Origin: Panopea generosa
Lineage: Eukaryota; Mollusca; Bivalvia; Adapedonta; Hiatellidae
Assembly (NCBI GenBank): GCA_029582155.1
Contig: CM055902.1
Coordinates: 15,946,086-16,010,085, forward strand
Length of the DNA stretch: 64,000 bases
Reading direction: 5' to 3'
Positions 6,059-43,538 of this stretch are shown piece by piece (position 1 is the stretch's first letter; each line of letters begins with the position of its first letter). The translations under genes and the position numbers were made by a program. A model generated the notes under the pieces. That model was not told the origin of the DNA. It did not search any database and saw only the letters and a program-made list of their open reading frames with translations.

Positions 6059-6713
6059 CTCGTTGACAAGTAAGGTGTAAGTTTCATTTAGCGTCTGTGA
6101 AACTAAGAGCAAAATACACATTTATTCTGGTTTATATAACCAACCGAGATAAAGTATCACAGAAAAAGCATGTAACATGAAATTTACTGGAGAAAGTATA
6201 GCTAAACTTATTCGTTGTAGCTGTTTGGCATCTATATTTGTACTTTATAAGAAACAACCCTTTATAAGTAATAATAAATAAAAGTATACATTTAAACATA
6301 TTTATAATGAAACACAAAGAGAACATTGAAATATGTATGGTATAAAACTATAATTTGACCTTTAAATGTCCAAGATGTCAAGTGGACGGTTTATGCTGGC
6401 ACAACAACAGAAGTATATGTCTATAAATACTATTTAAGATAACGAAAAACCTTAAAGTAGTAAAATGTATCAAAGTGTATGAATACTGGAAAAATTGTAT
6501 ATTTGTTAATAGCTCAATTTAGATTTATAAAATTTGCAGAACTAACTAAAACATAATTCCCGCTACTTTACCAAAACTGACCTCTTTTTCAACTCCGGTG
6601 CTTTTAAAGTTGCAACATAACAACTATTCCTTGTATAACCGTAGATGTGCTATTTACCTATAAAGTCTATTTTCGAAGGGCACTATAACATCAAAGGGGT
6701 TATCAAAATGTCT
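6059..6713. other. No gene seen
   Basis: AT-rich unique sequence between the AG microsatellite and the 42-bp array. No exon was supported. Confidence 0.4.
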
Positions 6714-9700: not shown

Positions 9701-10305
9701 GCACCACATTACAAACATGCCCCGTCATGTAACAAAACTACCGCACCCCGTTCAAAAGTGCCCCGTCATGTGACAAAACTACTGCACCACATAACAAATT
9801 TGCCCCGTCATGTAACAAAACTATCGCACCACATTACAAACGTGCCCCGTCATGTTACAAAACTATCACACCACATTTCAAACGTGCCCCGTCTTGTAAC
9901 AAAACAACGGCACCACAATACAAACAAGCCCCGTCATGTAACAGAACTACCGCACCACATTACAAACATGCCCCGTCATGTAACAAAACTACCGCACCGC
10001 ATTATCAAACATGCCCCGTCATGTAACAAAACTACCGCACCACATTATCAAACGTGCCCCGTCATGTGACAAAACATCCGCACCACATCACAAACATGCC
10101 CCGTCATGTGACAAAACTACAGCACCACATTACAAACGTGCCCCGTTATGTGACGAAACTACTGCACCACATTACAAACATGCCCCGTCATGTGACAAAA
10201 CTACTGCACCACATTACAAACGTGCCCCGTCATGTGACAAAACTACCGCACCACATAACAAACGTGCCCCGTCATGTAACGAAACAACCGCACAAAATAA
10301 CAAAT
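6714..10305 (+). repeat. Minisatellite, 42-bp unit, about 85 copies
   Basis: The unit contains CACCACATTACAAACATGCC followed by CCGTCATGTAACAAAACTAC and repeats with single-base variants. Because 42 is divisible by three, two plus-strand frames stay open for hundreds of codons, giving 14-residue peptide repeats such as HYKHAPSCNKTTAP. Occasional 43-bp units (for example around 7523 and 9625) shift the frame. There is no upstream exon, signal peptide or codon bias, and the frames switch freely, so it is treated as noncoding satellite. It ends about 1.07 kb before first exon 1A of the ammonium transporter. Confidence 0.93.
8400..9620 (+). repeat. 588-bp higher-order duplication inside the 42-bp array
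   Basis: About 630 bp starting near 8400 recurs at an offset of exactly 588 bp (14 units). Diagnostic variants recur at that spacing: CAGCGTTTAACAACACTACC at 8461 and 9049, CTAGCCTAAGCGTG near 8665 and 9253, and ATGTAACAGAACTACCGC near 8967 and 9555. By eye the copies look identical. Confidence 0.8.
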
Positions 10306-11373: not shown

Positions 11374-11488
11374 ATGGCGGTGAATATATCAGTGGAACAG
11401 TTAAATGCACAATTTTCAGAATGGAGGCAGGTTACGGAAGATAACTTGAATCAATTTTTCTTGCTAACAATGGGCATACTAATATATC
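11374..11488 (+). CDS. Amt: AMT exon 1A (alternative first coding exon)
   Basis: Encodes residues 1-38 plus one base. An Asn-Ile-Ser sequon lies at residue 4, a hydrophilic segment follows, then helix 1 with the [15 protein letters not shown] block that AMT proteins carry before the [12 protein letters not shown] motif of exon 2. ATG context is AATATGGC. The donor is GTGAGT at 11489, phase 1. Joining C with TG of exon 2 gives CTG (Leu). The intron to exon 2 would be 12.1 kb. Confidence 0.85.
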
Positions 11489-14400
11489 GTGAGTACAACT
11501 TGTCTATTGAAAATCATTCATAATATTACGGTTGTAATGGAGATATTTTGCATATGTTTCTCTATACGCGTGTAATACACAGAAATTATTCCAATCTCAT
11601 TATCATATATGTATATAAAGCATTTTCATTGAACAACGCCAATTTTTTTAAAGACTTTCATTTTTCGATAAAACCCTTGAGCCGGACTACTTTTTCGTTT
11701 ATCGCGTAAACAAAGAAGCATCGACATTTTGATGTTGGTTTAACAATATACGAACTTAAATGATGTGCACAACGGTTCCACGTTTATTTTAATAATAAAG
11801 TACAAAAAACAAACAAATGTTAGTTCTAGTCCTAGCTGTTTTATTCGGTTTATTGTTTTATAGATTTTTTTGGTTCAGCGATTTAACCGGGCGCCACAAT
11901 CAGACCAGAAACAATGAATTAGGTCACATAATGTTCAGATTTGAGATGTACTTTGTACAATTGAGCACACTGTTTACCGAACGTGAATGCTAACCGTTGA
12001 CAAAAATTTCCACAGACCAATTTATTCAACAGGAAAAATGAAAAAAACAAACATGTACTACTAGTTGAAATTCAGAAGCAAACGATCGTGAGACGATGTA
12101 AATACACAAACATTGCACGTAAAAGTCGTTTAAAACATTCCAAATCCGGATTCTCCACCAACCAGCGTGGATTTATATGACCTAAGTTTAATTGACATAT
12201 TTTTAAACAATCGTGTAGACAAAAACTAAACAATAACGTCAGCGTCTACACTGTGTGGGTATTTCCTGGAATTATTGATTTATTTGTCTAAATCGAGAAA
12301 TAAGAGGCGGCTGTTAATTTTTTTTACCTCAAAATATTTCGTCATTTTACAATAAACCAACTAATGTTACAGAGTTCATCTGATAATGGAAATAGTAGCC
12401 GTTATGATATTATTGGATATTAGATATTGATGTCAACCAGGACAGAGGTGATGTATTCTTACGCGTTTACTTCGCAGCGTATAGTTTGTTGTTTTTTTCA
12501 TTCACTTGAGGAGTCTCAAATTAAATATAATCACCAGGAATGGAATTATAAGGATTTTTTTTCTTCTGTTTTTTACGCATGTGTAAAGAATGTCGAATCA
12601 CGCACAAATCAAATAAAGTCGAAAGGTCTTCCTCCACCAATAAAATGCCATATATAACCTGAAACGAGTTGAAAAGGACTTTAAACATCATTAAAAAATA
12701 GATAAAAAATGTCACATGTGTGCATGCGATTATTATATATAAAGTATCATGTCGACTATAATATGTGCACAACCATTTAAAAATAAATAACATTATTTTC
12801 GCAATGTTGAGACAAAGATAAATTTGACAGATACCAAATTTGAAATAATAAACAAAATACTACACAGTGTTAAAGCGGTATTATATTATCTCATAAGTAT
12901 ATTATGCTGTCTGGGTCTGTTCCCCAGTTTGTATGTCCCGAACAGTTCGTCTGTTTTTTTTTTCTCTTCCGTTCTGTAAATATTGTTAAAAATGAAGAAA
13001 AAGTAGGACAGACTGAAACTAGTTCGTAAATCGTGCTTCATCTTCCGGTGTTCCACAGAAAACCAGCCATAACCCTAACCTTCCGGTGTTCCACAGAAAA
13101 CCAGCCATAACTCTAACCTTCCGGTTTTCAATAGGAAACCAGCCATAACCCTAACCTTCTGGTATTTTACAGGAAACCAGCCATAACCCTAACCTTCGGG
13201 AATTCAACAGGAAACCTAACCTTCGGGTATTCAACAGGAAACCAGCCATAACCCTAACCTTCCGGTGTTCCACAGAAAATCAGCCATAACTCTAACGTTC
13301 CGGTATCCAATAGGAAACCAGCCATAACCCTAACCGTCCGGTAATATCCAGGAAACCAGCCATAACCCTAACCTTCTAGTATTTTACAGGAAACCAGCCA
13401 TTACCCTAACCTTCGGGTATTCAACAGGAAACCTAACCTTCGGGTATTCAACAGGAAACCATCCACAACCTTAACCTTCTGGTATTCTACAGGAAACCAG
13501 CCATAACCCTTACCTTCCGGTGTTCCACATAAAACCAGCCATAACTCTTACCTTCCGGTATTCAATAGGAAACCAGCCATAACCCTAACCGTCCGGTAAT
13601 CTCCAGGAAACTAGCCATATCCCTAACCTTCTGGTATTTTACAGGAAACCAGCCATAACCCAAACCTTCTGGTATTCTACAGGAAACCAGCCATAACCCT
13701 AACCTTCCGGTATTACAGGAAACCAGTCATAACCCTAACCTTCTGGTATTCTGCAGGAAACCAGTCATAACCCTAACCTTCTGGCATTCTACAGGAAACA
13801 AGCCATAACCCTAACCTTCGGGTATTCAACAGGAAACCAGTCATAACCCTAACCTTCGGGTATTCAACAGGACACCAGCCATAACCCTAACCTTCGGGTA
13901 TTCAACAGGAAACCAGTCATAACCCTAACCTTCTGGCATTTTACAGGAAACCAGCCATAACCCTAACCTTCGGGTATTCAAAAGGAAACCAGCCACAACC
14001 CTGATCTTCGGGTATTCAACAGGAAACCAGCCATAACCGTAACCTTCTGGTATTCTACAGAAAACCAGCCATAACCCTAACCTTCCGGTGTTCCACAGAA
14101 AACAAGCCATAACTCTAACCTCCCGGTATGCAATAGGAAACAAGCCATAACCCTAACTGTCAAGTAATCTCCAAGAAACCAGCAATAACCCTAACCTTCC
14201 GGTATTCCACAGGAAACAAGCCATAACCCCAACCTTTTCACTCTTGTACGCACTTTACGTTTAATTACACAGTTACGCCCCTTTCCCCCACGGTAACATG
14301 AGTCGTATGCTTAAAAAATGTACTGTATAATTTGGTTTGAACAATATTCAAAATGGTGCACAGTGGTTGTGATTTCCTGTTTCACTACACAGTTGCTCCC

Positions 14401-17400
14401 CTTTTTCCCCACGGTAACATGATTCGTACGCTTAAAAAATGTACTGTGTAATTTGGTTTGAACTATTTTCAAAATTGTGCACAGTGGTTGTGATTTCTTG
14501 CTGTAGATGAGTAGAGCAAAAACTGGCAAAGCATACACTGCAATAAGACATCACTGGTATTAAAAATGACTTTAATAAGATTTTAACATATGCATGCATT
14601 TATGAGCATTTGAGGACCTCTTTTTTTAAAAAAAAAATATTAGGTAGTCACTGCGCCCTCTTTAAAAAAGGCATTATGATCAACCTACCAGCATTTTTAT
14701 ATTGGGATACACTCCTGCTATGAAACAAAATATTATAAAAAATTCTATGTTGATTATTTCTCTTGGAAATCCATGACCTTATTTTATATCGAAAAAGAAC
14801 AAAATTCAACTGTGTAGTGAGACATATAATATCAAAAGACGAAAAACGAATATCAAACTATTTGTTTTTATTTTCATAACGTTTTAGCGACAAAAACACG
14901 TATTGTCGTATTCATTAAAACGAATAAAAGGTCAACATCTGAAAAACAAATTAAGTCTTAAATTTGTTGAAGATACGACATCGAATTAAAATTTATCTAA
15001 TAAAAAACTTTGATAATACAAATTATTAATTAACGAATGTCACGATTGCCGGGTAATTCTTCATATCGCTATAATCAACTGACTGCTGTCGTATTGAAGG
15101 ATATTATCATTTGAAATCTTACTGAAATCTTTTCATCTCATCGTACAGACCTCAGTAATTACGTACTGATTATTATTATAAATGGGTTCGTACCTTACAC
15201 CGGTTTAACTTGTTTCAAAAGAATCAATCACGGATACAAAGTACAAATGTCCTTAAGCTTCCGAAGAGACAATTATTACCTGCGCTAGGAGAAATGCTGG
15301 AAATGATAGTAAACATGTTTCACATGATAGCCTGATAGTAACCTTTTAAACTTGCGTTTATATCTAATACTTCGTTTTTTACACATCATTGTTCGTGTTG
15401 TACAGGTCTCACTACACAGTTTAGTTGTGTTTTTTGTCTATTAAATGTTATAAGTTATAAGTTGCTAGTTATAGATTGATAGTTAGGGATTGCAAGTAAT
15501 AGATAGCTAATTATAGAATGCTAGTTATAGATTGATAGTTAGGGATTGCTAGTTATAGATAGCTAATTATAGAATGATATTTATAGATTGATAGTTAGGG
15601 ATTGCAAGTTATAGATAGTTAATTATAGAATGCTAGTTATAGATTGATAGTTAGGGATTGCTAGTTATAGATAGCTAATAATAGAATGCTAGTTATAGAT
15701 TTATAGTTAGGGATTGCAAGTTATAGATAGCTAATTATAGAATGCTAGTTATAGATTGATAGTTAGGGATTGCAAGTTATAGATAGCTAATAATAGAATG
15801 CTAGTTATAGATTGATAGTTAGGGATTGCAAGTTATAGATAGCTAATTATAGAATGCTAGTTATAGATTGATAGTTAGGGATTGCAAGTTATAGATAGCT
15901 AATTATAGAATGCTAGTTATAAATTGATAGTTAGGGATTGCAAGTTATAGATAGCTAATAATAGAATGCTAGTTATAGATTGATAGTTAGGGATTGCAAG
16001 TTATAGATAGCTAATTATAGAATGCTAATTATAGATTGATAGTTAGGGATTGCAAGTTATAGATAGCTAACTATAGAATACTAGTTATAGATTGATAGTT
16101 AGGGATTGCAAGTTATAGATAGCTAATAATAGAATGCTAGTTATAGATTGATAGTTAAGGATTGCAAGTTATAGATAGCTAATTATAGAATGCTAGTTAT
16201 AGATTGATAGTTAGGGATTGCAAGTTATAGATAGCTAATTATAGAATGCTAGTTATAGATTGATAGTTAGGGATTGCAAGTTATAGATAGCTAATTATAG
16301 AATGCTAGTTATAGATTGATAGTTAGGGATTGCTAGTTATAGGCTGCTTATCATCGATTGCTAGTAACAGGTTGCTAGTTATAGATTTCTAGTTATAGGT
16401 TGCTAGTTTTAGATAGCTAGCTATAGATTGCTACTAATAGATAGCTAGTTATAAAATGCTAGTTATATGTTTATAAAGAGTGCATAGGCCAAAAAGGCCA
16501 ATAAGGCGATTAAGTTTATGACAGTTTTATACAAAACCTGTGTATTTCTCTTTTTTTCAGGATTTAATCTTAATGGTATTTCAGATATGTTTCACTTTAA
16601 CGGATGAGTTGCCAAGGAATATCGCGTTTCTGAATGTGTTTAACTATATGGCTTGCTTGTTTCTTGAATATAACAGTTTGGAATATGGCAGGTCTATACT
16701 TTTTCCGGGAGGCTGTTCCTTCTGTAAACCGGCCTATATGAAATGAATAAGTAAATCGCAACCTGTAAGAAAACAGAATAATTCGGACGGAAAACTAATC
16801 AAACTGTATATGACTGGTTCTTGGTTAAAATCAATACGGTAAAACGTCATCAAATGGTTGGGTCGATAAATGCCGCGGTCTAAAACGTCAATATCTCCAA
16901 ATCGCATTAAAAAGTATTAAACATGAAATTAAAAGGTTATTGGAAAAAATATCAAATTGAATGATATTTAGTTGAAAATAACATTTTGTATTGCAATATT
17001 TATAAAAGTAAAACTTAATTGCATAAAATGACGCTAAATATATAAACAAACAAAAATAAAATTTAATACCAAGTATTTAAAAAGTTGTCAGGCATATTTT
17101 TCAGGTCTAGGGCAGGTTTACACTACTACAAATATTGGGTCTGCATTGGTACATGTTCTTTTGGCAGTAAAGCAGTAGCGTGAAACAATGTCCAAACTAT
17201 TGATTCAGACCATGGTCAGAACATATAACAACACAAACTGAACGGAATAGGTTACCCGGTACTTTTGTATTTCTAATATGTTTGTCCAAATATTGAGTAT
17301 TATTATTAAAATATTTATAAGATATCAATAGCTTTGATTATTTAATTTTATCTAGACTTAATGTTCTTTCTTATTCCAGTCCAAATTTCAAGGAAATTGC

Positions 17401-20400
17401 GCCAATACTTTTTGCGAAAATACATAAAGTGTCAGGTACATAAAATGTCCGGTGGTGGGTTAGCTATTCCGTTCAGTATGCTATTGCTAGCATTCGTCTT
17501 TGGACCTACTGTAGATATTGTATACGAGTACCAAACTATGACCATCATGTTGCCATCGTCCATTGCCATCTTAAACCCCGTTGTCTCGGTGGCCTCTATA
17601 ACAGGTGAAATGTTATTAGCATATGGCAGGCCAACCGTTGCAATAGTGTATACGTAACTCTTTTTCTTGTTTAAACTTAACATTTGTTTTGTTAAACTAT
17701 ATATATGGTGTTAAAATTATATTTATGTTATTCCTTTTACATTCTTATTGTTAGTAGAGCCTGTGGTCCAGCGAATGAGCACCGAAACCATGATCAGAGG
17801 GTCTTTGGTCCGATCCAACGCCACGGCTATGTTCGGTGTCCTTGAGCAAGACACTTTTTCCGCATATGCTTTGTACTAGTTCTACACAGGAAGTCTTTGA
17901 GCATGATTTGTCTTAGTTGTAAGAACTTGTCTCACAATCAAAGTAAAACAAATAAGTTAAAAATATTATTAAACTAAGAACGTAAATATAAAAGAACTTA
18001 CAACAAACATATAAAATGAACAAACACAAATTAAGTTAAACACAATGTACAAGTTTACAACAATAATGTAAATTATGAACATAAATATAAAAAAAAACAT
18101 CAAACACAGACAGAACCTTAACAACACGAATAAAAAACACTGATAAGTTTTATATTGTTGTTCATCAATTAGCATTTTGGGTAAAGATACGTCACATGTT
18201 AAACTTGAAACGAGGTTTCTGATTGGATACACACAATTCAAAACATGGCTGTGCCCACTCATGGCGATTTTCAACACATGGCGTGTTTTGTTATGCTTAT
18301 GTTAAATTCCAGCATTGTGCAAATTCAACTACAGGAAGGTGGTATCAGTTGAGAGACACTTTTGTTACAACGCTCGGACGCAACAAGGTTACACTTCGAC
18401 GGCGTTGCAGTGAACAAGATGGATACTTTTTATAAAGACATTGCTTGAGGATGGGGCACCCGGCATACGACGTTCGTGAAGCACCAGAGTGACGACGCAA
18501 ATGACAATAACATACAACACCGATGATGATGATTATTTATCGTCACCACCGGTTTCAAACAAGGGCAACGCGTCGTGTAGAGTATTAGTAATTTGATGTT
18601 TTTGAAGGAAAGTGCTAACCACTAAACCGCTCCCCACAACAACGACGGCGATATTGACAGAGACGATATCAACTGCGACCGTGGAGCTCGTGGTCCAGTG
18701 GTATAACATTGGTCCATGATCGGATGTCTTAGGTTCGATCCTTAGCCACGGCTTTGTGTGGTGTCCTTCAGCAAGACACTTATTCCGCATATGCTGAGTA
18801 CTGATCCTACAAAGAAAGATTTCGAACGTGATTTGTATATCGCCAGGCCCGATTAGCTCAGTCGTTAGCGCGTCCGACTGTCAATCCAGAGGTCGTGAGT
18901 TCGAATTCCCGCTCGGCCAAAATCTCCGCCGTGCTGTTTGATATACGACATTGCGTCTCAAATTTATTCTCACCGCTGATTCAAGTGGGAATATTATCAG
19001 TTACTTGCGGAGATGGGGTATGCTCGAGTACTGGTTAACCTTCCATGACCCCAGGAAACCGTGGTTAGTTTAACTGATCGCCTGTTAGCCCTCGATGGCA
19101 TAAAAATGAGCTAAATATTCAATCAATCAATCAATCAATCAACCAATCAATGTGATTTGTATAAGCTGTCATATTAACTTGTTTCACAATCGAAGTAAAA
19201 TAATTAAGTTTAAGCTAACTGCGTCTGTAACAATGACATATTGACTCCGTCGACAAAGACCGGCAGTAAACCAGACAATATATTAAACGGTTGGCTTGGA
19301 AATTATACTACGAATACCTATTGCCTGCAATGAAACGTACACGAACAGATTACGCTCTGAGGAATTCTCTTACCGTGCAATCGATGATTTTAAAATCAGG
19401 TTACCATTAACGGTGTGTTAGCATAGCTTTGCATCGCAGGGAACGTTACCGCATTAATTGCAAGACTACATTATTGATAAGATCGTATAGTAAATTAAAA
19501 ATATGAGACAACAATCGGGATTTCGGGAAATGTCTATTCTTTGTTTCGTATGAAGCTTTCCATTCCGATTCTACAGAAATATTACAAAATGGAATAACTG
19601 ACAGTGTGAGAAAGAAAACTGTCAGTGTAGTGTTAAATATATATTTTAATAAATTTCTATATAAAAATGATCCGTATATAATTGATGTTTATAAGGTAAA
19701 ATGAATTACCACAAAGTGATACTTTATTTCAACAATGTCGTTTAGGACCTTTAGGCAATATTTAATTTAGTATACGGTATGTTAATTATGTGTGAAATAT
19801 ATGTGAAGGATATTAATTGAAAACAATTCAAAAACATGTTTGCGATGAATTTTCTTTTTTTATCGGTTATCTTTTATTAATTAGTGTATGTGTTGTAGCT
19901 TAATTTAAATCAATTACCATGCGATAAAAACAACAACACCAACAGCAACAAGAACAACAACAACGCAATGTGGTTATAAAGCATTTGATATTAAGATAAT
20001 AAGGCATTAGTCGAAAAACTTTTTGTTTACTATGTGTTTTCAACTAACATTCGAAGCCGAGGAATATTCGGTATACTGTGTTGTCAATTACATGCATTAT
20101 CCAGATAATGTAATCGAAAATTTTCGAAAATTACTATCGATTTGATTCGATAGTTGAAATCGGATTAAATTGTAATTAAAAATTGAAATTTATCACGTGT
20201 AATGCTTGGTTAAAAATAGACAGTCAAGATGCTGTTGAATAACTCGACCACTGCAATGGAGATGGCCATGTTGCTGTCGTGGAGAAAGAACACAAACGAA
20301 AACTTGAACCAGCTTTTCCTGATCATCATGGGAATACTTATATACTGTACGTTACCCCCAATTTAATATCATTTTACAGTTGTGGATCTAGAGGATGACA

Positions 20401-23400
20401 ATGGGGAAATTTCCTGAATAATAAAAAATGTACCTATTTCAATGAAAATGGTGAAAAATATATTTTTGGACCAACTGGCGTTACAGGATCTCCTCCGAGA
20501 GAGATTTACACAAAAGGCATTGTACCCCTCTGTCTTAAAAAGTCCAGGGGTGGTATTCACCAAACATTCTTATGAATTTTCTTAGACTTTAACTCAAGAA
20601 TGAATTTTGAAAAACACACTTAGAGACCGTTGTTTAAGATTAAAATATGCAAGCATGTAGAGACTTTTAATATATAGTAAAACTCCCACACTTATTATAT
20701 CTGTCATAGGAAACTAGATATTTAATGTTTAAATTTGGATTTTCAAGCTTAAGTCTAAGAATATTTTCAAGATTGGTTGGTGAATACGACCGCTGGATCC
20801 GGCTATCTTTATAATGAATTGAGTAAATACGGTATTGTAAGGCCTCCGGTTCGCATATGTCCACCAATATTAGCTTATTGATATATGAGGTAAACTTAGA
20901 TATTCGAATCCATATATCTGCGGCGTTAGAACCGGTTCTAGGGTTAGAGCGTCCACCTCGTTATGCGGAAGGTCATGGGTTCGATGCCCGGTCGGGTAAT
21001 ATCGAAGACTTGAAAAATAAAACATGTCGCTCAGCATTTTGAGGATAGTTTTCGGTCTAGTCGGCCCGGTGTCAGAATAATGCGACTGGATGGGGTATCA
21101 TACCATGTGTCTGCGGCATGATACTCCAGTGTGGCAGCACTTAAAATACTGTCTCAAGTATTCACCATTGTGATATAACTGGACAGTTGTTGGAAACGAC
21201 GCTAAACGCCATATGTATACATGTATAACAAAAACTCTGAGACGTTGCTAGGTAACACAAATCTGATTAGGATATGAAAGGAAAGGACTTGTATAGGTTC
21301 TTTAGATATTCCTTTATTAATAACATACTGAATTTTCAATCGTTGTGTCTCTTATATCATAATTATAGTTGGTATGTCATCAAACAAAGCTTATTTTAAT
21401 ATTGTTTTCTGAAGCTCTTTCGAAAAAAACACAACTTTATTTAACATAATTATGGTAATGGTCTTAACTCAATAATACTGTTTCAAAATAAAGGGTAATG
21501 AACATACTTCTTTATTTCAGTATAAAACCATTTTTCTTGTCGTCATGGAAACACATAATTATTGTATACTAATAATATTGAACAACACCAGAGGTCGCCA
21601 CATACTATTGCAGAATATGCGCCGAGCTTGTAAAGCAAAGTAAACCCGTGCCTCTGCAACTCATTTCTCGGCATCATTAATGTGGAAATAAGATGTATCT
21701 CCCAAACACATTTCATCTGATAAAATGGTAATAGAATACATAAATAATTAAGCAGTATACTTGCGCCATTTTTTTAGAAACTGTGTCGGATACGTTAACC
21801 TTATAAGGACAGTATCTCAAATAGTATCATGATATTATAAGTATCATATTTTATAAGTATATCATTTTCTCACGTGACTCCGGTCAGATGTGTTCACGTT
21901 TGCGACAGTGTGGCTTAGCATGTACAGAAAAGTTAAACATATTTTATTTCAAATATTTTGAAATTGAGTTGGGCCACAAGTTCTTCTAACTTAGATTCAG
22001 TCATCCCCCTACAAGTAGTAACAAATTACATGTTTTTACTAATATAAACATTGTTTGAGCTACCGTAAGGTTGCCCGTTTATTACCCCGTAATGGGTCTG
22101 CAGGGGTTGGGGTCATCCCGCTGCAAACCGCACAATAACAGCATTTATACAATTTTAGCAACATTTTGCAAAACATATATTATCATATAATATCAAAATC
22201 ACTAATACATTGATTTGTTGTTCGTTTTGACTTACATAGGTGCAAAAAATTAAACATACTTAGCTGTAAGAAAATCATATCTCACACACAGGATAGTAAT
22301 ACGTTAATATTCACTATATTTACTGGAATAAACAATTGTTAACATACAGTAGGTGATTGAGTGAGAGAACAAAAGAGTGAGGTGGTGAAAAAGATAGAGA
22401 GAGAAGAAGAATGAGAGTGCCAAGCTTACACCAAAAGCACACCCAGATATACAGGCAAGGTCACATTGCGGATTTTATTAACACCGTCCAGGGAAAACAA
22501 CTTTATTTAACCAATAACAACATTTTAAAGTAAACACTAGCCAGCTAAGACCGGTCCAGTAACTGGATAATAAAATAGTGGCGAAATTACAGCAACGTTT
22601 TATGTGTCAAAATTGGATGTTATTTAGAACTTAAACGTTCTGAACGGCTGTCTGTTATAAGCGTAACGACTTTTTAAAACATTGAAATATTATAAATAAG
22701 AAAGACGTATGATGAATATAATTTTACGATATTATTCTACAAAAACTATGATGATACAATAAATGGATAAAAATGATTTATTATATAGTTAATGATGTGT
22801 AGACTACGTAAACCGCCCTGTCATCGTATCTGCATATCTTTCTTTATAAATGTTAATAATAATTCAAGTTTAAACTGATTTATGTTTAAGTAAAGAGGGT
22901 TGCTGAGGTAGCCCCCCACCCCCCCCTCCCGCCCCCTGGTGGTGGTGTTTTGTCATTTTTTTAAAGATCCTAACTTTGTAAGATTTTTTTGTGATGGGAT
23001 TACTCTTGTATGCATCTAGATACATTCATAACATAAGGTCAAGGTCAATCAAGAATTGTGATTTTCTATATTTTATAAATTCTTGTTTCTGCAAACAAAC
23101 ATAATGATTTGTTGATTTAAACAATGTTTCACAATCGGCGTAAATATATAAGTTTAAACAACTATATTTAAACTGTACGCAGAAATTTTCATGGTGTAAA
23201 TCATATTTGACTCATATTTGGAGTACATTATATGTTAGGTTATACTTATTAATTTAGCTCGATCGCAAAAAACGTGTGAGCTTCATGGCTATAATCAGTA
23301 CTGAGTGTTGTTCTTTGAAGGTCATCGGGTCAAGCCTGACTCGAACCCACGACTGCTGGCACGAGCAGTCAAAACTCTTTCCTCTACACCACGGCTCCGC

Positions 23401-26400
23401 TTTGCAAATAACCCCCCCCCCCACAACTTTGTTAAAATATAGATTTAAGAAAAGCATGTAACACTCGTACCACACGAGTTGCCATTCATCAAACATTTGA
23501 ACAAATGTACCGGTCATTTTTTCATATCATATCATTTCAGTATCAAAGTACCTTGCGTGTCAGTTATAACGTGTTTGTATTAATCTTTGTTTCAGTGATG
23601 CAGGCGGGCTTTGCTTTCCTGGAGGCTGGGGCTGTCAGAAGTAAGAACACGGTCAATATCCTTATCAAGAATGCGCTTGACTCGTGTGAGTATATAAATA
23701 ATTAACACACATTATATTGAGCGGTGTGCCACTATATAATAAATCACGATTTTGATTGGATGTTATCTTTTATAGTTAAGAGGTTAAAACGCACCTTTAG
23801 TCCCCCATGGTTGTTATCGTCATTATGGGTCAAATTTGTTTGCGCAAGTTTTCTGTACGAGCGTCGTTTTTTGTCCAACATATATTCGCGCGTTACTTTT
23901 AGTCGGGAAGATATTCTCGTTATCTGTGATTTTGAATAGTTGTAAACTTTAAAATGGATGATTTTTATGGTGTAATAAGCAGAGTTTCATAGAAATATGG
24001 AACCCCCAAAATAAAATTCTGTCTTTTTAACCTTAGTATAAAAAGTGTTTGTTTAGTGGATCGTATAAAGGGAAACCCATCGGAAATACCCCAATAACCT
24101 GACAAGTCTCTCTTTTATCCGTAACAGACGCTGTTAACCACAGACACTGGTAGAAAACATTTTTTTTTTGTATTTATTAATTTATTTCCTGATGTTAGTT
24201 CTTAATCAAGGGGAATGTTCAATATGTTTAATGATTCAAGTTTCCACACGTGTAAATGCAGCAATACATAATGACATATGATTTTGTCATTACTCTTGCT
24301 ATATTTGACAGTATTTACATTGATTAGTCCGATGGTGAGAAATAAACATGTATACTGTTAGTTCATTTTCTACACAGGTATATTTCAATATATTCAGTTT
24401 ATATTAGTATATTTCCCTAGAGCTTGGTAACGTTCAAACAATGGCATAGTCTTTACCATAGGTAATACTGTTGTGTAAGTGCTAAAATGTAGAATATATT
24501 ATATATATAAGAAATATTTAATAATCTGTATTTAATAGGGATATATACAATTGCTACAGAGAGTTCATGGGAGATATTTTACTGGTTATTCGATAAAAGT
24601 ATTTAATACTTTCACATTGTTTTTTTTTTATAAAATACAAAAAAACACAAAACATTTGTTTACTCTTAAACTAGCTAAATGATTTTAAAATCCAATAAAT
24701 AAAAGAAAAATATTGATAATAAACACATGAAAAACAGATGATAAGTTATGTCTTATACATTTGCAGAAATTGAGATAGAAATTCCAGATACAACCATTTC
24801 GCACCAAGAAATAATTTGCAGTATTTTGGTGTGAAAGTGTTGTAATTTGGTCTTCATTAAGTATCTTCTTTTTAAGCTAAATGACTGTTTGCTGTCAGTC
24901 TCTATTAAAATCATCCACAAAATTGAAAATGATAGTCTTAAGACAATAATAACCATAAACAAAAAATAAAATAATGAACAAGTTTTTTGTCTTTCCTAAA
25001 CAATTTAGGAATATTGAGTTACAAACATTTCGCACCAAACCCTCGAGATAATGTATGTATAAATCAAATAAAATATATGTTCTGCTCTGCTCTGCTCTGC
25101 TCTGCTCTGTTCTGTTATAAAATGCCAGTTGGCAGATTATCTGTTGCGTTCAGTATATTTTGTATTTTTACATTCGAAAATGGTTAATCAGAAGTACGAA
25201 TATTTTCATTCATGCGGATTCTTTATGCGATGAAAACTCACAATAAACGTAGCTATATAGTTAATGCTTTAATGCTTCGGGCAAAAGGCTATGTGTACAA
25301 AACGTATCAGCTTACACATTGTCATTCTAGGTCCATATATTTTCTTTATTTTCCGTTTCATTGACAGGCTCTAAGCAAAAAATGTCTCTTGTGTATAGCC
25401 ATTAATGTATCCATCAAAGAAATTTAATGAGTTCGTGTATGAATTATGTTGTTTTTGTAATAGGACGTAAAATATATAAATAGTCTATATAAACGCGAGG
25501 TAGAGTAATTATTCTTGAATCCGTTTGGTTGTGGTTTAGAATAGAATCACTGTCGATCTCTGCAGAGGGTTAGGAATCCTCCGATTTTGTTCATTATTGT
25601 GGTTTAATTATCAACCCCTGTGTGGCTAATGAATGTCGTAGGAAGCGACAATTTAAGTGTTTGCAGTTCTGCAGGTATCAAGATTCTAGGTTCATTCTGG
25701 ATATTCAATTGTTAACTTCTAATGTGTTTGGTGCGCTGTAAATCAATATTCATTCATTCATTCATTCATTCATCCATCCATCCATCCATCCATCCATCCA
25801 TCCATCCATCCATCCATCCATCCATCCATCCATCCATTCATTCATTCATTCATTCATTCATTCACTCACTCACTCACTCACTCATTCATTCATTCATTCA
25901 TTCATTCATTCATTCATTCATTGTTCTGGAAGATAAGTAGTTTTGACCCAATATAATTACACGTACTAGTATATCAAAGATGATTGTCAATCTAGTTTAA
26001 TTTAAATATAGTTCATAAACAACGTGGTAACAAAACATTTATGTACAGTATGGCTTATCCAGTTTTATTGGTGAAGGAACATGTAATAGATGCATGTGCA
26101 TATAAAGTGTGCTTAAGACCGAACTTGGCTTGAACCCGCGACCACCTCATCACAATAAGAGATAAGTGATATTCAGACGGCGCCTTCGACCAATCTGCCA
26201 CTGAGGACCTTTCTGGATGAATCAACAAGTACTATTATCTGGTCAACTTTGTTACATAAAAGTTTTGTACTAAGTCGGTATCGAATGATTATAAAGAATT
26301 GGCCCAATGGCTCACACATGTCATAAAAGGCAACGCCATGGTCTTCCCTAGAACCTGATATCTCCTGAATCAGGTCAATATAAAACCCAAAATAAAAAAG

Positions 26401-28380: not shown

Positions 28381-31300
28381 GGGGGTAGTGGGGCTTACCG
28401 CTGCCTCTGCGCCAGCGTTGTTTTTCAGGTTAAAGTACATGTAGCATTGTACATTTCGCCATGCCAACTTAAGCTACTCTCATTGGTTATTTCAGTTTTT
28501 GGAGGCGTGTCATACTGGTTGGTTGGTTACGCGCTAGCGTTTGGCAAAGGGAATGCTTTCATTGGTTACACTTACTTTGCCCATAGCGACATGCCAGACA
28601 CAAGCTATGCTCATTGGTTCTTCCAGTTTGTCTTTGCCGCAACTGCTGCCACCATAGTATCGGGCGCTGTTGCCGAGAGGTGCGATTTTACTGCATACAT
28701 TATATACAGCACCTTAATAACAGGTAAGCTAACTAAATACGATATTAATATTCAGTTAAACTAGTCACTTAATTAATATAAGTATGTTAATATGTCTCTG
28801 GTTAAAATGACCCAAAATGAAAACTTTTAATCGACTTCAAACGTATTTTTTTTGCTGATAAATGTATATTTAGAGTTAAAAAGTTTTCATCGAAGTTTTA
28901 TGGTTATATTAATGTTCCTGTGTAATTTACTGGAAAAATCAGACATTGCATTTTTTCTAAACAATTAAGTGAAAAAGGACAAAATGAAAATTCCAGAGAA
29001 ATGAAAATGATCACAAAAGACAAAAAAAAAAAAGACAAAGTACTGACTGAGTGCAATAACTGCTTTTTTAAAAATGTCAGTAACTAGTGTGGACTCCGTT
29101 TTTACGAATGCATTTCTGAATACGTCATCTCTATGAATTTATGTAATGTTAAATGAGCGTGTTTGGAATACGTTGCCATTTCGACAGAAGTGAATTTGGA
29201 GGTCGTTTATGGTATCAATTTGATAATTTAACGCTCAGTCTGAATGGATATTGTATATTTTTATATACATATCGAGGGGTAAATACGAAAACGGTTTTAA
29301 TGCTTCTTTATGTATATGCACTTAGTCCTTTTATGCTTTTACCCCTCGATATACAGTGTTGTGGTCCCTGCTTGAAATTCATGGTACTGTATTATGTATT
29401 AAACTCGTGTATGTTCTAGGTTTTATATATCCAGTCGTGACACATTGGGCGTGGACCTCCGAGGGTTGGCTGTCTGTTGGGCAGACTTACACGATCGATG
29501 ATGTGCCCGTTGATATTGCCTATGTCGTAAGTGATGATATTGGTTAAGTCTGGTACATTTTGTTGAGAGAATGTGTCTACAGTAGAACCCCGATGGCTCG
29601 AGTACGATGGGACTGGACAAAATAGTTCGAGTTAAGGGTTATTCGAGCCAAGTAGTGTCCATAATCATACCATACATATACATGTGCATACAACGAAATA
29701 GGAATTTTTCCGGGCACCAAATAAATAGTTCGAGTATATGTGGTGTTCGAGCCATCCACGTTCGAGTTAACGAAGTTCTACTGTATTTGTTATATTGAAC
29801 AACGTTTACACAACAATAATGATTGATCTTAACTATAAGTTTTGTATTTGGTTTTATTTTTGTTTTAAATTTATCTTATTCGGTGTAAATAACTTATTGA
29901 CTTAAAATAATGATCAAACATTTTACTCTACTTACCTCATTCTAACGCCAGGCCCGGTTAGATTAGTCGGTAGCGCGTATGGTTATCGATCCAGGTGTCC
30001 TGAGTTCGAATTCCCCTCCGGTCACAGTCTTCTTCATGACTGATATACAACATAGGAGCTCATTGTCATTCATCTCTGAATTCAGTAGGAAAGATATCGG
30101 TTACTTGAGGAGATTGGTGTAATTAAGCACTGGTTAACCTTCCAGGGAAAGAGTGGTTTGTAACAGATAATTCATAAACTAATCAATTACTTTTTTCTCT
30201 TCTTCAGGATTTTGCCGGAAGTGGCGTTGTCCACATGGTTGGTGGTATAGCGGCATTCATAGCAGCCCTAGCCTTGGGACCAAGAATCGGGAGATTCGAT
30301 AAGGAGACAGGGGCCGCTATTGATATAAGGGGACACTCGATTCCAGTAATTACAATATTGCTATGTACCATCACGTTAATATTCTATGCCAAAAGAATGT
30401 AAGCTGTTATAACGAACTGTAAAATCACATTTTGTTATGGGTGTAGAAAACTTCATTAAGCAGTGGTTTGCCCGCCCAGAAAGGTCTTGGGTTACATACG
30501 AGTAAATCACAAATATATTTATCCTAAATTAAGGGAACATAACTATGATCACTTTTGTAACAATGCCGAATTCGAGTTGATCTCTAAATCAGAAGTAAGA
30601 AGAAATGCTAACTGTGTACCTTAAATGAAATTAGCTCGACTATTCGGAGTAAATAGAAAGCTATTCTACTCACCCGGGTTTCGGCGTCGGCGTAGGTGTC
30701 ACACCTTATTAAAGTTTTGCACGCAAGTCCCTATCTCAGTAACCATTGCATATACTGACTTGAAACTTTACGAAAGACACAACTGTCATTAAGCCTACTA
30801 CAATAACTATGTCATTTTAATCGTGCATGAATATAATGCAAATTATTGCCCTTGTTTGAATTAAAAATTCTGGTTAAAGTAATGCATGCAAGTACCATCA
30901 ATTTCATATCCCACCAACCACTCAATGTATTTGTAGACAACAAACTATTGTACTTTTTCAAGTGCTTTATTGATCTGCCCTCATTTCTATTTTCCATAAT
31001 CCAGTTATTCTTTTATAGACGACTCCCAATTCACATCTTTGTTGGTTACCTTTATAATTATTTATAAAACATCTTTTCATTAAGCTTGCATCTCTCGGAG
31101 GATTTATTCTCGTTTTCGGATTCTTCGCTTTCAACGGGTCATCGCAAGGCGCCATAACATCGGAAGGAGATGGCGCTGCTGTAGCCATTGCCGTAAAGAA
31201 TACTGTTTTAGCGGCAAGTGGCGGCGCGTTTACGACATTAATCATGAACAAGACAAAGTACTTTGGTGACAAGAAATGGAGTTTTCTAACAACTCTTAAT

Positions 31301-34300
31301 GGTTGTTTGACTGGAATGGTAAGATATGTCATTATTAAACTGACTGGAATGTACGATGTAAGAATATTAATTCGCACGAAAAGGGAATAGGGGCCGGTTT
31401 CAGTAATCATCTCAAGCTGCAATGTGACTCAACTCAAAATTCAAAATTTCTCTAAATCATATCTCGAACTCATTACACATTAAATGATCACACAGAATTT
31501 AAGTCGGAACACATCTCTACTCATCGGTAAAGTAAACTATGCAAAATGATCCATGCAAATACAATTACAATATTTCAAATATTTGAGTTGAAGAATTGGG
31601 GTTTAACTCAATTTTAACGCATATCAGATTATATATGGTATACCCAGTTTAACTGAGTCAGACTGAGTAGAACCACCGTCCTTCCGCAAGTAACTGCCAA
31701 ACTTTCTCACATAAAGGTTTTGGAGATAGCGGGACTTTAGCGGTGAGAAGTACATGTAAGTGATAATGAGGCGGTGCCTTAGACCACTCGGCCACGGGAG
31801 ACCCTCATTGAGTTGAACAAAATCTCATGTTTAGTGAAACTGGTGTCTGAACCGCATCCATGACCTCAATCTAAGAATAAAAACAGAGCGAACTTAGTTA
31901 CTTACTTTTTGTCTTTTGATATTCAAGTTATGTAACTCTTCCAGTATTCTGGGTAATTTAGATCAGTGTTAGGGTCAGTTCAAGTTGAATACCGAAATAC
32001 AAAAGATGATGAACAACGAACATTTTAGGTCTGTCGAAAATATTCATCGACTAGGAAACAAAGCATTTAAAGGGTACAATCACCACAGTAGTATAGACAT
32101 ACATGTAAGCAATACATGGAGCAATCAATTGAATTGAGTGAATATTTAGCGCCATTTTTATGTCATCGAGGTCTAACAGACGATCATTTTATCTAACCAC
32201 TGTTTTCTGGGATCCTGAAAGGTTAACTGGTACTCGAGCACATCCTATCTCCGCAAGTAACTGATACATTTCCCACTTGAATCAGCGGTGAGAGACGAAT
32301 GATAATGAGATACATTGTCGTGTATCAATCATCACGGAGACTGTTGCCGGGAGGGGAATCGAATTCACGGTCCCTGGATTAATAGTCAGACGCCTTACCG
32401 ACTGAGCTAATTGAGCCCGGCAAACAAATAAGATAAAAACATAGAAGAAGTGATGAAAGGGCTAGAGTAAACCCCGTCATTAGAGAGCTTACACTAGGTC
32501 TACAGATGCAATCATAGACACGTATTCTAACCCCGCCCGAGCCCCTTCCGTCGCAATACCACACAGGTAGGCCCTATAATTAATGAGGTAAAAAAACTAA
32601 GATAATATACTTTCTCTCTACAATAAACATGTATGTGTTTTGTTTTTATATATATATGTTTGGATGCAGCAAGTAATTATTGATTTGGTTGCAATTGTAG
32701 CTAAATGATGGCTTTGAAGGTCAAATGTATAAAAGTTAACTTGAATTGGATTTAATGCCAGTTTCAAAATACTATAAATACAACACTGTCTATGTATGGC
32801 AGCGAGTTATATATATATAAGCGATATACGCAAGGGCAACCTCAGAATGCAATGAACAGAACAACTTTCTTACAATTTTCTCACATAAATATTTGAATCA
32901 AGATGGACTCGAACCCGTAACCTAAATGACGTAAGTGGTAATATTGTGAGCGATCTTACGGACGTCCCATAGACCACTCGGTCATTCTGTTAAACAAATT
33001 TCATTTCCTTTCCAGGTTGCTATATGTGCAGGTTGTAACCAGTTCCACTCATACATGGCGTTCATCACCGGTATACTGGGTGGAGTATCATACATGGCAT
33101 TCACGTGGCTAGTCCTTAAGTTGCAGGTGGACGATCCACTGGACGCCACGGCTGGTTTGTATACTAACATATAATATATGGATTTAGACGAATGCACGTT
33201 TTGATTGAGATAGATTAACTGATAAAGTCCCCAGCATCAGTCTAGTTAGATCCGTACCGTCCTTTTAAAATTAACTAGGACACTTTTGGACGGAGCTGGC
33301 AACGAATACTTAACGTCACCAGATTTATAGTATTTTCAGATTGGAATTGGAATTACTATGTCACTTTTAAGATTTAAGAAATATATTCCATCTTTTTATG
33401 AAATACAAACTTTTTCACGACATTTAAAAAAAAAAAAAGGTATCACAGTATTCCTTGAATCTGTGTCATTCTGTTAATAGGCAAATGTTATGTATTATTC
33501 AATGTGCAGTTCTTGAATCAAACCAACTATGCAATAGGCGATGTCCAAATTTGCTACAGTCAGACGATGCCACTACTATAAGAAACATGTCCATTGCCAC
33601 ATTCCTGGTAAAGATGAACTTTTGTTTTGTCGAATAACATCCATAAAGTTTATAAAACATGCATAAACCGTCACCGGGCATCTAGTTTTCAATTTCTGAT
33701 GAGCGAGATGTCGAATGTAAAGTGTACAATTTTATAATGTACGGGACTAGCGAGTTGTCCGATGAGTTCAAGTTTTCGATGCTCGAATTATCGAAGTTTT
33801 CACTTTGTATTAATATATATTTTGTAGTGCATTTTGGTGGTGGTATCGTGGGCGTGGTGACCGTGCCGTTCTTCTCCAGCGACTACGGTATCGTCTACAA
33901 TTGGAATTTGAAATCTGCCTACGTACGTACTTTTAAAATATTGAGTAGATAAAAATGCGATCATGTGAGAAATATCCAGGGCTCGGACCGATCCACCACA
34001 ACTAATTTGTGAGTGCAAAATGCCTTCGGACACTTCTAGAGGCTCTCTTACTACACTGACCCATAATGAAAACTTTACATCGACTTTAAAAGTATCTCTT
34101 TTGCTGATAAATATTCAGGGATAAAACATGTTTTATTGAAGTTTTATGGCTATATTAATGTTTCTGAGTAATTTACTGGAAAAAATCAGACATCGCTTTT
34201 TTTTCTGATCAAATAAGTGAAGAAGGGTCAAAATGAAAATTCCAGAACAATGAAAATGATCACGTGACATTTGAAAAAGACATAAAGTGCTGACTAAGTG

Positions 34301-36468
34301 CAATTATTGTCAGTAACCAGCGTGGACTCTGTTTTTACTAATGCATTCTCGAATACGTCATCGTTGTGAACTTACGTAACGCCAAATGAGCGTGCTTGGA
34401 ATACGTTGCCATTCCAACAGAAGCCAATTTCGGAGATCGTGTATGGTATCAATTTGATGTTTAGACCTGACCCAGCGATCCGATTTATTTCATACGTGTT
34501 CTATGGGGTTCAGACTCGGGGATACAGAAGCTTTGCCACTGGTTTCGCGTGTATTGTAAATGACGTCGGGCCCATAACAGCTCGATGGCGCGCTGTCGGA
34601 ATCTGACCAGTGTCTGGCCGACGAGCACGAATTGGAACACGGTTTTATCCCTAACGGTTTACGATCGTCTGTGCATGAACACCGTTACGCCAAGGAGTAC
34701 GTGATGCAGGTAAGCAACGGTTACGTAGAAGAGTCAACGTAATTGCGCGATGAGTACGAAACGTTGTTGCACGTGTGCAACCGGGTCTGACTTGATCTCT
34801 GACATATCCAATAGTATTGTACCGGTTCGCAAGAATATAAATAGTATATCAGGAACAGCCGAAATGGAGTACAAGACCCGACCCGGAGTATACAAAGAGC
34901 ATGATTTCTCTCAGTTTCAGAAAGACATGGCATCGCTAAATTAAAGTGCTTTTATAAACAAATTTAAGATTTTTATCCGTGCTAAGCAATGAATGATTAC
35001 TTGTCAGTGTAAAAGCTGTAAGTGAAAAACGTGCAACGTATGAAAAACGTGCAAAGTATGAAAAACTTTTTTTATTGTTCTCGGACGCATGAATACTTCG
35101 GATATTTTGAGAGAAAAAAATGCATGTTGATTATCCGCAACTAAATCCTGATAGCCATGTATAACACGTGACGGAACATGCATGTTGATTATCCGCAATT
35201 AAATCCTGATAGCCATGTAAAACACGTGTCGGAACATGCATGTTGATTATCCACAATTAAATCCTGATAGCCATGTATTACACGTGACGGAACATGCATG
35301 TTGATTATCCGCAATTAAATCCTGATAGCCATGTATAACACGTATCGGAACATGCATGTTAATTATCCACAATTAAATCCTGATAGCCATGTATTTCACG
35401 TGACGGAACATGCATGTTGATTATCCGCAATTAAATCCTGATAGCCATGTATAACACGTGTCGGAACATGTATGTTAACAAAAAAATATATTCAAACATA
35501 TAAAATGTTAAGTTTACATTTTGGGTAAGTGTATGGGGTCCTCTGTGGTCAAGAGGTATAAGGCACGGTTGTCTAATACAACACCAAGGACATTTACTCT
35601 CTGATTATCTTTTGCATCCATTGTAGATCAAGCCCGGCCAGCCTATTACCGCTGAGGTCGTGAGTTTAAGCCAAGCTTAGTAAAAAAAAAATGAGAAAGT
35701 TTGTAAGTTACTTGTTGAAAGACAGTAGTTCTGCTAGATTCATTTTGAAGTATTCTTCAATCAGTAAAAACTAGATATGCCGTTTATAGGTATTGAAAAT
35801 TGCGTTAAACCCGATTGTTACTGGTATAACTGAGTTGATATATCAAAATGTATTCAGAACATAGAGAAATTCCTTATATAACTGAACGTTGGGTCCATAC
35901 ATTTTAAATATACAGTCAAATCTGCCTTAAGCAATCAGTCAAGTAAACGAGCAAAGGTAGCTTTTAAGACAGTTTGTTGCGTAATACAGATGAATTTGCA
36001 CTGAAAGTATGAACATGGGATATAGCAAATACGGCTGCTTAAGACAAGTGGCTGCTTAATAGAGGTGACTGTTTACACAGGTTTGGCTGTACTTGTCATT
36101 ATTATATACGCAACTTGGAGTTTAGATCTAACTGTATATCGCGTGTTTATAACAGCATCTGGCATGGCAGCTAGCAGGCCTGGTGTCAATAACGGTGTGG
36201 GCAGTGTTCCTGAGCCTAATCATGTTCTTCGGCCTCAAGTTTGCCCGTATTCTCAGGGTGTCATTCGATTACGAGATGAAAGGTAACACAGTTTCAATTA
36301 TTCAGGGTGTGCTTTAGATAATTTTGTATACAACTCAAAGAACTTGTTATTTTATATTTCCAAGGTACAGGATATTATTAGATTTATTTAATTTCTTTCT
36401 TTCATTTACCTTTATTGTTGAACGCGTACATGCATGTAAAGACTGCTTATAAATTTGGTATAATGATG

Positions 36469-42160: not shown

Positions 42161-43538
42161 ATTTTGAATCAAAGTGTTAGGAATCCTTGAAATGGGTGTC
42201 AGGTACATTCTATCAATTGTGATATCCCTTGTTATGGTTAATTATCAACCTCTGTATGGTTCAAAGGCACAAAAGAGTGAAGGCAATAATATGTTTTGTT
42301 TCATAAAATCCTATTCTATTCGTGTAGCTAGCGAATTCCGAGACAGGTTTAAGTAACTCGCTGCTGCACCGGCGACAATTCAACTGACATTATAGTACAT
42401 AACCATGCTTTAATCTTTTTTTTTCAAGAAAGTTTGATATTATAATTTGAATGATTTACATTAATGCAGCGTAGCATCAAAATTAAATTTGCATATTTAA
42501 GAAATTTTGTATTTGCTGTAGAAATGATATATGTTAAAAGATATATTATCAGAGGCATAGCTTTGCCAATTTAAAAACGAAGGCCTAGAAATGGTTTCAA
42601 GGGAAGGGTAGGCTGCTGAGGTGTTTAAAAATACCAGTTACTTCCGGGAATTTCATTAATTTTTTACTTTTCTTCGAAAAAGTGCAGGTCCGGGACTGCA
42701 GTGCCTACGCGTAAAGGCGCCGTTGCATATACATAGAAACTTTTATTTGCAATTCAATAGGTCATAGGGCAGTGTGGACATATACAAAACAGGAATAAAT
42801 TTACATACATGACGTAACACATACTGTATCTTATATTACAAAAAAAATGTAAAGAAGAAAGAGAAAATAATACGTATGCATAACGCAATGTGCATACATA
42901 TATATATACATAAAACATATATACCAGTTACATGTTAATCAATTGGTTTTATTTAATGAGGTTAAATTTAATAAAATCCATACATCAAAAATTTGTGGAA
43001 AATCATATAACATGAACAATATTTAGTTTTTAAAATCTTGAAATATCAACGGACGTTGAGCTAACTACATGGTACTGTAACATTTATCACTTTTTCTGCT
43101 TCTTGTATATTATAGAGCGATACTGATGTGAGAGTGACCTAAGAATGAATGTGATGAGTAGAAATACAGTCTTTCTCTATGTAACTGGCAAATGTTTCTG
43201 ATAAAAAGATGCATGGATCCCATTTCAATAATGGACAGAAACTATTTTTCGAACATTTTTTTTTACGATAAGTATGCAAAACCAAACCAGTAAATCAATA
43301 AAGCAGTTGGTCTGATGGTCTAAGCATTTGTATATCACAACTGAGGTCAGGGGTGTGAACTGTTGAAAATGCACCTGTGTGTGTGAGTGCTGCGCGTGTG
43401 CGTGCGGCGTGCGTATGTTTGTGTGTGTATGTGTGTGTATGTATGTGTGCGTGCATATGTGAGTGCGTGTTTGTGTGTGTGTTTGTGTGTGATAGTCTCT
43501 TAAAACTCCTTTATAAATAAGCTGTTTTGATAACAATG
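42161..43538. other. Intergenic, no gene seen
   Basis: Contains a family F body fragment at about 42174-42265 and a GT-rich microsatellite (about 43375-43490) whose minus-strand open frame of Thr-His repeats is an artefact. Confidence 0.45.

What the first reader, a model, noticed from the sequence alone, without database searches (positions are those of the whole stretch)
11374..23685. Two interchangeable first coding exons for one ammonium transporter
Exons 1A (11374-11488) and 1B (20229-20346) both encode an extracellular N-terminus plus the complete start of helix 1. Their ends are near-identical ([15 protein letters not shown] versus [15 protein letters not shown]), and both leave in phase 1 into the same exon 2, restoring Leu either way (CTG or TTG). 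Only one copy of exons 2-11 exists. The simplest reading is two promoters 8.9 kb apart giving two isoforms, created by duplication of a first exon. Isoforms of metazoan AMTs that differ only in helix 1 are not something I know to be described.
Basis: partly seen in the sequence, partly recalled or inferred. Interest (0 to 1): 0.8.

Follow-up and report, generated by a model that had tools for sequence, protein, structure and literature searches.

The report
Swappable first exons in ammonium transporters
An animal ammonium-transporter gene appears to have at least three interchangeable starting exons rather than two, and its sister gene three more, so one transporter body could be built with different outer ends; this is predicted from DNA and no RNA has been seen.

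Summary
Exons 1A (11374-11488) and 1B (20229-20346) both read ATG, a polar tail and the first half of helix 1, end in phase 1 at good donors, and fit the same exon 2 (23596-23685). Exons 2-10, plus a tentative exon 11, give one intact AMT body.

The finding is larger than reported. In fetched flanks of the same 1.47 Gb genome a third first exon (1C, C9:15924414-15924549) lies 33 kb upstream of 1A. The closest paralog (C9:66.965-67.043 Mb) has one body and three first exons of its own (P1, P2, P3). A whole-genome pattern written to fit them found five of these and one chance match.

1A and 1B share 12 of 15 residues of the helix part, with 8 synonymous and 3 non-synonymous differences; their flanks share nothing significant. 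So the duplication is old and the coding ends are conserved. First exons resemble each other by locus.

Most likely these are variable-first-exon genes (UGT1-like layout) with separate promoters, swapping the extracellular N-tail and outer half of helix 1. Transcription and promoters are inferred: no RNA or other species' genome was available.

The parts
11374..11488 (+). First coding exon 1A: 26-residue N-tail with a sequon at Asn4, first half of helix 1, phase-1 donor
20229..20346 (+). First coding exon 1B: 27-residue N-tail with sequons at Asn4 and Asn5, first half of helix 1, phase-1 donor
23596..23685 (+). Shared exon 2: second half of helix 1 and start of loop 1
   Evidence: Pfam hit
28496..28723 (+). 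Shared exon 3
   Evidence: Pfam hit
29420..29526 (+). Shared exon 4
30208..30345 (+). Shared exon 5, with the first His of the twin-His pair (GVVHMVGG; motif assignment recalled)
   Evidence: Pfam hit
31085..31318 (+). Shared exon 6
   Evidence: Pfam hit
33016..33154 (+). Shared exon 7
   Evidence: Pfam hit
33828..33922 (+). Shared exon 8, with the second His of the twin-His pair (AVHFGGG; motif assignment recalled)
36156..36282 (+). Shared exon 9
37576..37710 (+). Shared exon 10
38409..38545 (+). Tentative last coding exon 11, ends in TAA
   Evidence: chosen by frame and look from a long list of candidates, no homology support

Best explanation
The gene is an AMT-type ammonium transporter with an array of variable first exons. 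Shown in the sequence: three homologous first coding exons (1C, 1A, 1B) lie 45.1, 12.1 and 3.2 kb upstream of one shared exon 2, all ending in phase 1 inside helix 1; the closest paralog has the same layout with three first exons. Inferred: each first exon has its own promoter, its donor joins the next usable acceptor, which is exon 2, and the exons between are skipped because they have no acceptor. The products would share the pore body and differ in the extracellular N-tail (length, charge, glycosylation site) and the outer half of helix 1. The likely use is tissue- or condition-specific expression, together with a changed extracellular vestibule, trimer contact or surface delivery.
For: Exons exact, in phase, with donors. 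A profile made from 1A and 1B alone found four further candidates in 290 kb at scores 62, 51, 43 and 37; the next was 27 and the best of 2 Mb of random sequence 33. With a profile from all six they score 68-74 (partly by construction), the next 34, random 1 Mb 37. Whole-genome pattern written to fit them: 6 exact matches, 5 of them these exons, reversed-pattern control 0. One body at each locus. Queries built on 1A, 1B and 1C hit only these exons and the exon-2 part of AMT-family genes. Purifying selection: 1A/1B 8 synonymous against 3 non-synonymous, P 0.0005; 1A/1C P 0.0002. Similarity stops at the exon ends. The joined protein matches PF00909, E 3.3e-109 and 1.4e-109 for the two forms.
Against: No transcript evidence. 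A copper amine oxidase gene on the other strand lies between 1C and 1A, so 1C could in principle be separated from this gene. P3 scored only just above random; it stands mainly as a sister of P2 (13 of 15 residues). Only 2 of 15 exon pairs pass a Bonferroni-corrected test for excess synonymous change, and none of nine between-locus pairs passes even 0.05. With one mismatch the pattern gives 56 matches against 24 in the control and only 6 are known first exons, so diverged first exons elsewhere are not excluded. Candidate upstream acceptors exist at about chance strength, so a shared 5' leader with alternative splicing is not excluded. The N-tails align poorly.
Confidence: 0.75

Rival explanations
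1. One promoter upstream with a non-coding leader, and mutually exclusive splicing chooses 1C, 1A or 1B as the second exon.
For: 1C has a candidate acceptor at -69 (score 6.1) and P1 one at -145 (score 8.7). 10 of 17 real acceptors of these genes score below 6 when left out, so weak sites can be real.
Against: The best site upstream of each of the six lies in the top 2-7% of all AGs, about what some 20 AGs in 400 nt give by chance. The nearest listed candidate of 1B is at -124 with score 5.7.
Confidence: 0.15
2. Some first exons, above all 1A or 1C, are remnants of tandem gene copies whose bodies were lost, or are rarely used, so there is in effect one isoform.
For: Duplication is seen in this family here: P2 and P3 are a tandem duplicate, and another AMT-family exon exists in two copies with the same translation at C9:62.94 and 62.97 Mb.
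Against: Frames, start codons and donors are intact in six of six, synonymous changes dominate between 1A and 1B and between 1A and 1C, and no AMT body fragment with a meaningful score lies near 1A or 1C.
Confidence: 0.12
3. Isoforms exist but differ only in expression pattern; the protein difference has no consequence. (Compatible with the array itself; it disputes only the functional step.)
For: [quoted passage not shown] Most changes between 1A and 1B in the helix part are hydrophobic for hydrophobic.
Against: Four of six tails carry a glycosylation sequon and the P2/P3 tails are only 8 residues long, so the extracellular parts differ in kind. The same paper says the N terminus builds the vestibule and likely stabilises the trimer.
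Confidence: 0.4
4. Assembly artefact or chance similarity.
For: The region is rich in tandem repeats, where assemblies can err.
Against: 1A and 1B differ by 11 of 45 bases in the conserved part, too many for haplotypes, and the flanks are unrelated. The mutual match is significant even against the whole genome for 1A to 1B (E 0.0036).
Confidence: 0.02

Closest known systems
UGT1 and GCNT2 variable-first-exon clusters of vertebrates (PMC1885805, abstract and outline seen; protocadherin clusters named there too)
   Same: Several homologous first exons in tandem, each joined to one set of shared exons; species-specific duplications of variable exons.
   Different: As recalled, there the variable exon encodes a whole domain and arrays are larger; here it encodes an N-tail and half a transmembrane helix of a transporter.
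DMT1/SLC11A2 exons 1A and 1B (recalled, no call)
   Same: Metal transporter with two 5' exons and two promoters giving different N-termini.
   Different: As recalled, those ends lie before the first helix and are not homologous to each other.
Anopheles gambiae AgAmt and AgRh50 (PMC4216128, passages)
   Same: Animal AMT/Rh genes; AgRh50 has two spliced forms.
Razor clam Sc-AMT1 (PMC10215384, passages)
   Same: Bivalve AMT, 550 residues, 11 helices, no signal peptide, raised in gill after ammonia exposure.
   Different: One cDNA; the word exon does not occur in the main text and isoform occurs once, about another transporter.
Yeast Mep2 (PMC4852598, passages)
   Same: N-tail 20-25 residues longer than in bacteria, outside the cell; Asn4 was replaced there to prevent glycosylation. 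1A also has a sequon at Asn4 and 1B at Asn4 and Asn5.
   Different: No alternative N-terminus mentioned in the passages; fungal.

Membership tests
Amt/Mep/Rh ammonium transporters, AMT branch (PF00909) | Full-length match to the family profile | tested here: met
   Isoform A residues 29-436, profile 2-399 of 399, E 3.3e-109; the 28 solved relatives of isoform A are named ammonium transporters, ammonia channels or MEP2
Amt/Mep/Rh ammonium transporters, AMT branch (PF00909) | Twin-His pore residues | tested here: met
   GVVHMVGG and ATAVHFGGG in the joined frame, His aligned with His in the two solved AMTs shown; that these are the twin His is recalled
Amt/Mep/Rh ammonium transporters, AMT branch (PF00909) | Transports ammonium | not testable with these tools
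   Needs an assay
Variable-first-exon genes (UGT1-like) | Two or more homologous first coding exons, same splice phase, one shared body | tested here: met
Variable-first-exon genes (UGT1-like) | A promoter for each first exon | tested here: inconclusive
   No strong upstream acceptor, but the scan has little power
Variable-first-exon genes (UGT1-like) | Transcripts joining each first exon to the shared exon | not testable with these tools
   No RNA data held

The most novel reading that the evidence does not exclude
In this animal two AMT genes each carry an array of three variable first exons, so that promoter choice sets the extracellular N-tail (with or without a glycan) and the outer half of helix 1, tuning vestibule, trimer stability or membrane sorting of an otherwise fixed ammonium transporter.
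Probability: 0.35. Interest if true: 0.65.

Novelty: new variant of a known kind. Interest (0 to 1): 0.55.

Why it matters
Ammonium transport underlies nitrogen excretion and ammonia tolerance in aquatic animals (general knowledge). If the isoforms are made, two bodies with three natural N-ends each are a ready experiment on what the N-tail and outer helix 1 of AMT proteins do, a point the Mep2 paper leaves open. It would also give a small, tractable variable-first-exon system in a transporter.

Tried and rejected
Tried without result. Repeat finding and blastn between the flanks of 1A and 1B gave nothing significant beyond the coding end (next best E 0.026, at non-corresponding places). A motif scan, a scored scan and an ATG-to-donor scan of about 28 kb upstream of the paralog's exon 2 gave only low-scoring or low-complexity candidates; P1-P3 lay further out and were found by profile. 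Rfam: no family of 4227 reaches its gathering score in the window. In one search, 56 matches are 5 exact known exons, P3, the C2 match with an in-frame TGA, and 49 others; I fetched and read 2 of these 49 (C16:47.80 Mb, C4:59.20 Mb) and rejected both, as no helix with a donor follows; the other 47 I saw only as matched letters. None of the 49 lies at either AMT locus.

Considered and rejected: exon 1A belonging to another AMT gene; chance. The idea that the arrays predate the split of the two AMT genes (1C and P1 share NMDQFF) is not favoured: exons group by locus, best of 10 partitions, but six short sequences cannot settle it. Structure prediction was not run, because the spliced protein is not read from the DNA letter for letter, which that tool requires. 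Related bivalve genomes: the tool descriptions offer none.

Literature: nine searches on AMT with isoforms, splice variants, first exons, promoters or giant clam, or on variable first exons listed no paper that by title or start of abstract describes alternative first exons of an animal AMT; I saw all rows except 2 of 21. Passages of one more paper, PMC12239484, proved unrelated. One further search concerned Mep2 (8 of 23 rows seen). RefSeq predicted isoforms were not checked and may already list some.
Full report
OBSERVATION. The coordinates are right to the base. Exon 1A (11374-11488) and exon 1B (20229-20346) each run from ATG to a phase-1 donor (gtgagt, gtacgt), and exon 2 starts TG at 23596. 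I joined exons 2-10 (23596-23685, 28496-28723, 29420-29526, 30208-30345, 31085-31318, 33016-33154, 33828-33922, 36156-36282, 37576-37710); with 1A or 1B in front the frame stays open for 469 or 470 residues. A tentative last exon 38409-38545 ending in TAA closes it, making about 514 or 515 residues (it was picked from a list of candidates and has no homology support). Both forms match PF00909 over profile 2-399 of 399 (E 3.3e-109 and 1.4e-109), and the 28 solved sequences matched by isoform A are AMT, AmtB and Mep2 proteins.

NOT CHANCE. 1A as query finds 1B at E 7.6e-5 in 144 kb and at 0.0036 in the whole genome; 1B finds 1A at 0.022. Beyond these scores, both end in the same phase at a donor and both fit exon 2.

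LARGER THAN REPORTED. The window lies at C9:15946086-16010085 of a 1.47 Gb genome in 39 contigs. I scanned 290 kb (the window and all loci then held) with a profile of the 15-residue end of 1A and 1B followed by a phase-1 GT. Besides 1A and 1B, four places stood out at 62, 51, 43 and 37; the next was 27, and the best in 2 Mb of random sequence was 33. So the first three stand clear, and the fourth (P3) only just; P3 is carried by being a close sister of the third (P2; 13 of 15 residues). With a profile from all six and no donor demanded, the six score 68-74 (partly by construction), the next is 34, and 1 Mb of random sequence reaches 37. They are 1C at C9:15924414-15924549, upstream of this gene on the same strand, and P1 (C9:67014942-67015047), P3 (67038814-67038874) and P2 (67043267-67043327) on the minus strand upstream of the closest paralog. 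All four have gtaagt donors.

UNIQUENESS. A 29-place degenerate pattern, written so as to fit five of the six, has 6 exact matches in the whole genome: 1A, 1B, 1C, P1, P2 and one on C2 with an in-frame TGA; the reversed control has 0. With one mismatch there are 56 matches against 24 in the control. Six are the known first exons, one is the C2 match, 49 are others, none of them at either AMT locus. Many look like AT-rich repeats, but I fetched only two; both fail. So this motif is confined to the two loci at the strict level, and diverged first exons elsewhere are not excluded. Protein queries of 1A, 1B or 1C with exon 2 hit only these exons and the exon-2 part of AMT-family genes (6, 6 and 3 matches at E up to 10); the 1C query did not recover 1A or 1B. 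The P1 and P2 queries did not complete.

ONE BODY PER ARRAY. In 144 kb around the window gene each of exons 2-10 matches once at its place; the only other matches are 1A itself, 1B (E 7.6e-5), 1C (0.23) and two at E 0.78 and 7.9. At the paralog, counterparts of exons 2-10 are found once each between 66979.4 and 66965.0 kb, with the same exon 2 phase; the rest are P1 (0.43) and four matches at E 6.5-9.4. From exon 2 the first exons lie 3.2 (1B), 12.1 (1A) and 45.1 kb (1C) upstream in the window gene, and 35.5 (P1), 59.4 (P3) and 63.8 kb (P2) in the paralog.

SELECTION AND ORIGIN. In the last 15 codons 1A and 1B differ by 8 synonymous and 3 non-synonymous changes (binomial P 0.0005); 1A/1C P 0.0002; 1B/1C 0.012; P1/P2 0.027; P2/P3 0.019; P1/P3 0.30. 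That is 5 of 15 pairs below 0.05 and 2 of 15 after Bonferroni correction; the nine between-locus pairs are all above 0.05, with synonymous sites largely saturated. Outside the coding end 1A and 1B share nothing significant. P2 and P3 still share about 228 nt of exon and following intron at 78%, so this duplication is younger. The exons group by locus (best of 10 ways to split six into three and three). This means duplication within each gene after the two genes split, or later homogenisation; six short sequences cannot tell these apart.

WHAT THE SWAP CHANGES. The exons encode the N-tail and about the first half of helix 1 (the hydrophobic peaks straddle the exon junction). Tails are 26 (1A), 27 (1B), 33 (1C), 23 (P1), 8 (P2) and 8 (P3) residues. 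Four of six carry an N-glycosylation sequon (1A Asn4, 1B Asn4 and Asn5, 1C Asn15, P1 Asn6); shuffling the four long tails gives four of four with probability 0.018, a post hoc test that leaves out P2 and P3. In Mep2 of yeast the tail is extracellular, the authors replaced Asn4 to prevent glycosylation, the tail touches the neighbouring monomer and likely stabilises the trimer, yet deleting residues 2-27 did not impair growth (PMC4852598, passages). So a structural role is plausible and unproven.

MECHANISM. The simplest model is one promoter per first exon, each donor joining exon 2. It needs no acceptor upstream of 1A or 1B. A weight matrix from 17 acceptors of the two genes finds best candidates within 400 nt of each ATG at 4.6-8.7, in the top 2-7% of all AGs; but 10 of 17 real acceptors score below 6 when left out, so the test is inconclusive. 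A copper amine oxidase gene lies on the opposite strand between 1C and 1A: two of three frames given to Pfam match PF01179 (E 5e-30 and 5e-23; C9:15930058-15933035), and the third, up to 15935249, matches nothing. If 1C is used, that gene is nested in its intron. It also makes 1C the least certain member at this locus.

NOVELTY. Variable-first-exon clusters are known (UGT1, GCNT2, protocadherins; PMC1885805, abstract). The alternative forms in the AMT/Rh family that I could read about are C-terminal (AgRh50, PMC4216128, passages); AgAmt is said to appear to encode one transcript, and razor clam AMT1 is reported as one cDNA. Nine searches of the open library listed no report of alternative first exons in an animal AMT; subscription papers and RefSeq models were not seen. 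I file it as a new variant of a known kind: a known gene layout in a transporter family where I found no report of it, present in two paralogs.

Noticed in passing
L009 1415-4919 minus (C9:66979414-66982918), just upstream of exon 2 of the paralogous AMT gene: Two blocks of a 28-bp tandem repeat (about 40 and 45 copies) whose unit resembles the exon-2 3' splice site plus about 9 bases of exon 2; the genuine splice site is the last copy. 52 matches to TTTTCAGTNATGCAAT with up to one mismatch, the real site included, mean 0.00 in 200 shuffles. How the spliceosome picks the true site among dozens of look-alikes is unexplained; no tandem repeat was reported at exon 2 of the window gene.
   Followed up: partly
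C9:15930058-15933035 minus, perhaps to 15935249 (L023, upstream of the window): Copper amine oxidase gene (PF01179 in two of three frames scanned) between first exons 1C and 1A; this class of enzyme releases ammonia (recalled), next to an ammonium transporter.
   Followed up: partly
L037 and L038 (C9:62.972 and 62.938 Mb, minus): Another AMT-family exon (QDFGGSGVVHVVGGAAAL) present twice, 33.8 kb apart, with the same translation in both: a recent tandem copy or an assembly duplicate.
   Followed up: partly
window 6714-10304, 43537-44869, 52503-57162: Long minisatellites (42-, 37- and 36-bp units, up to about 129 copies); the first and third stay open in several frames and give false long ORFs.
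   Followed up: no
C13:1129618-1130196 and 49204333-49205198: Further AMT-family genes with longer exons (profile 12-202 in one open stretch in the first). Their matches begin at profile 12-15, about where exon 2 begins in the window gene, so they may share the helix-1 intron; their first exons were not looked for.
   Followed up: no
L012 about 6490-7140, minus strand, between the paralog's exon 2 and P1: A reverse-transcriptase-like frame (FIDAKKAFDT), resembling a LINE by recalled motif, in the long paralog intron.
   Followed up: no
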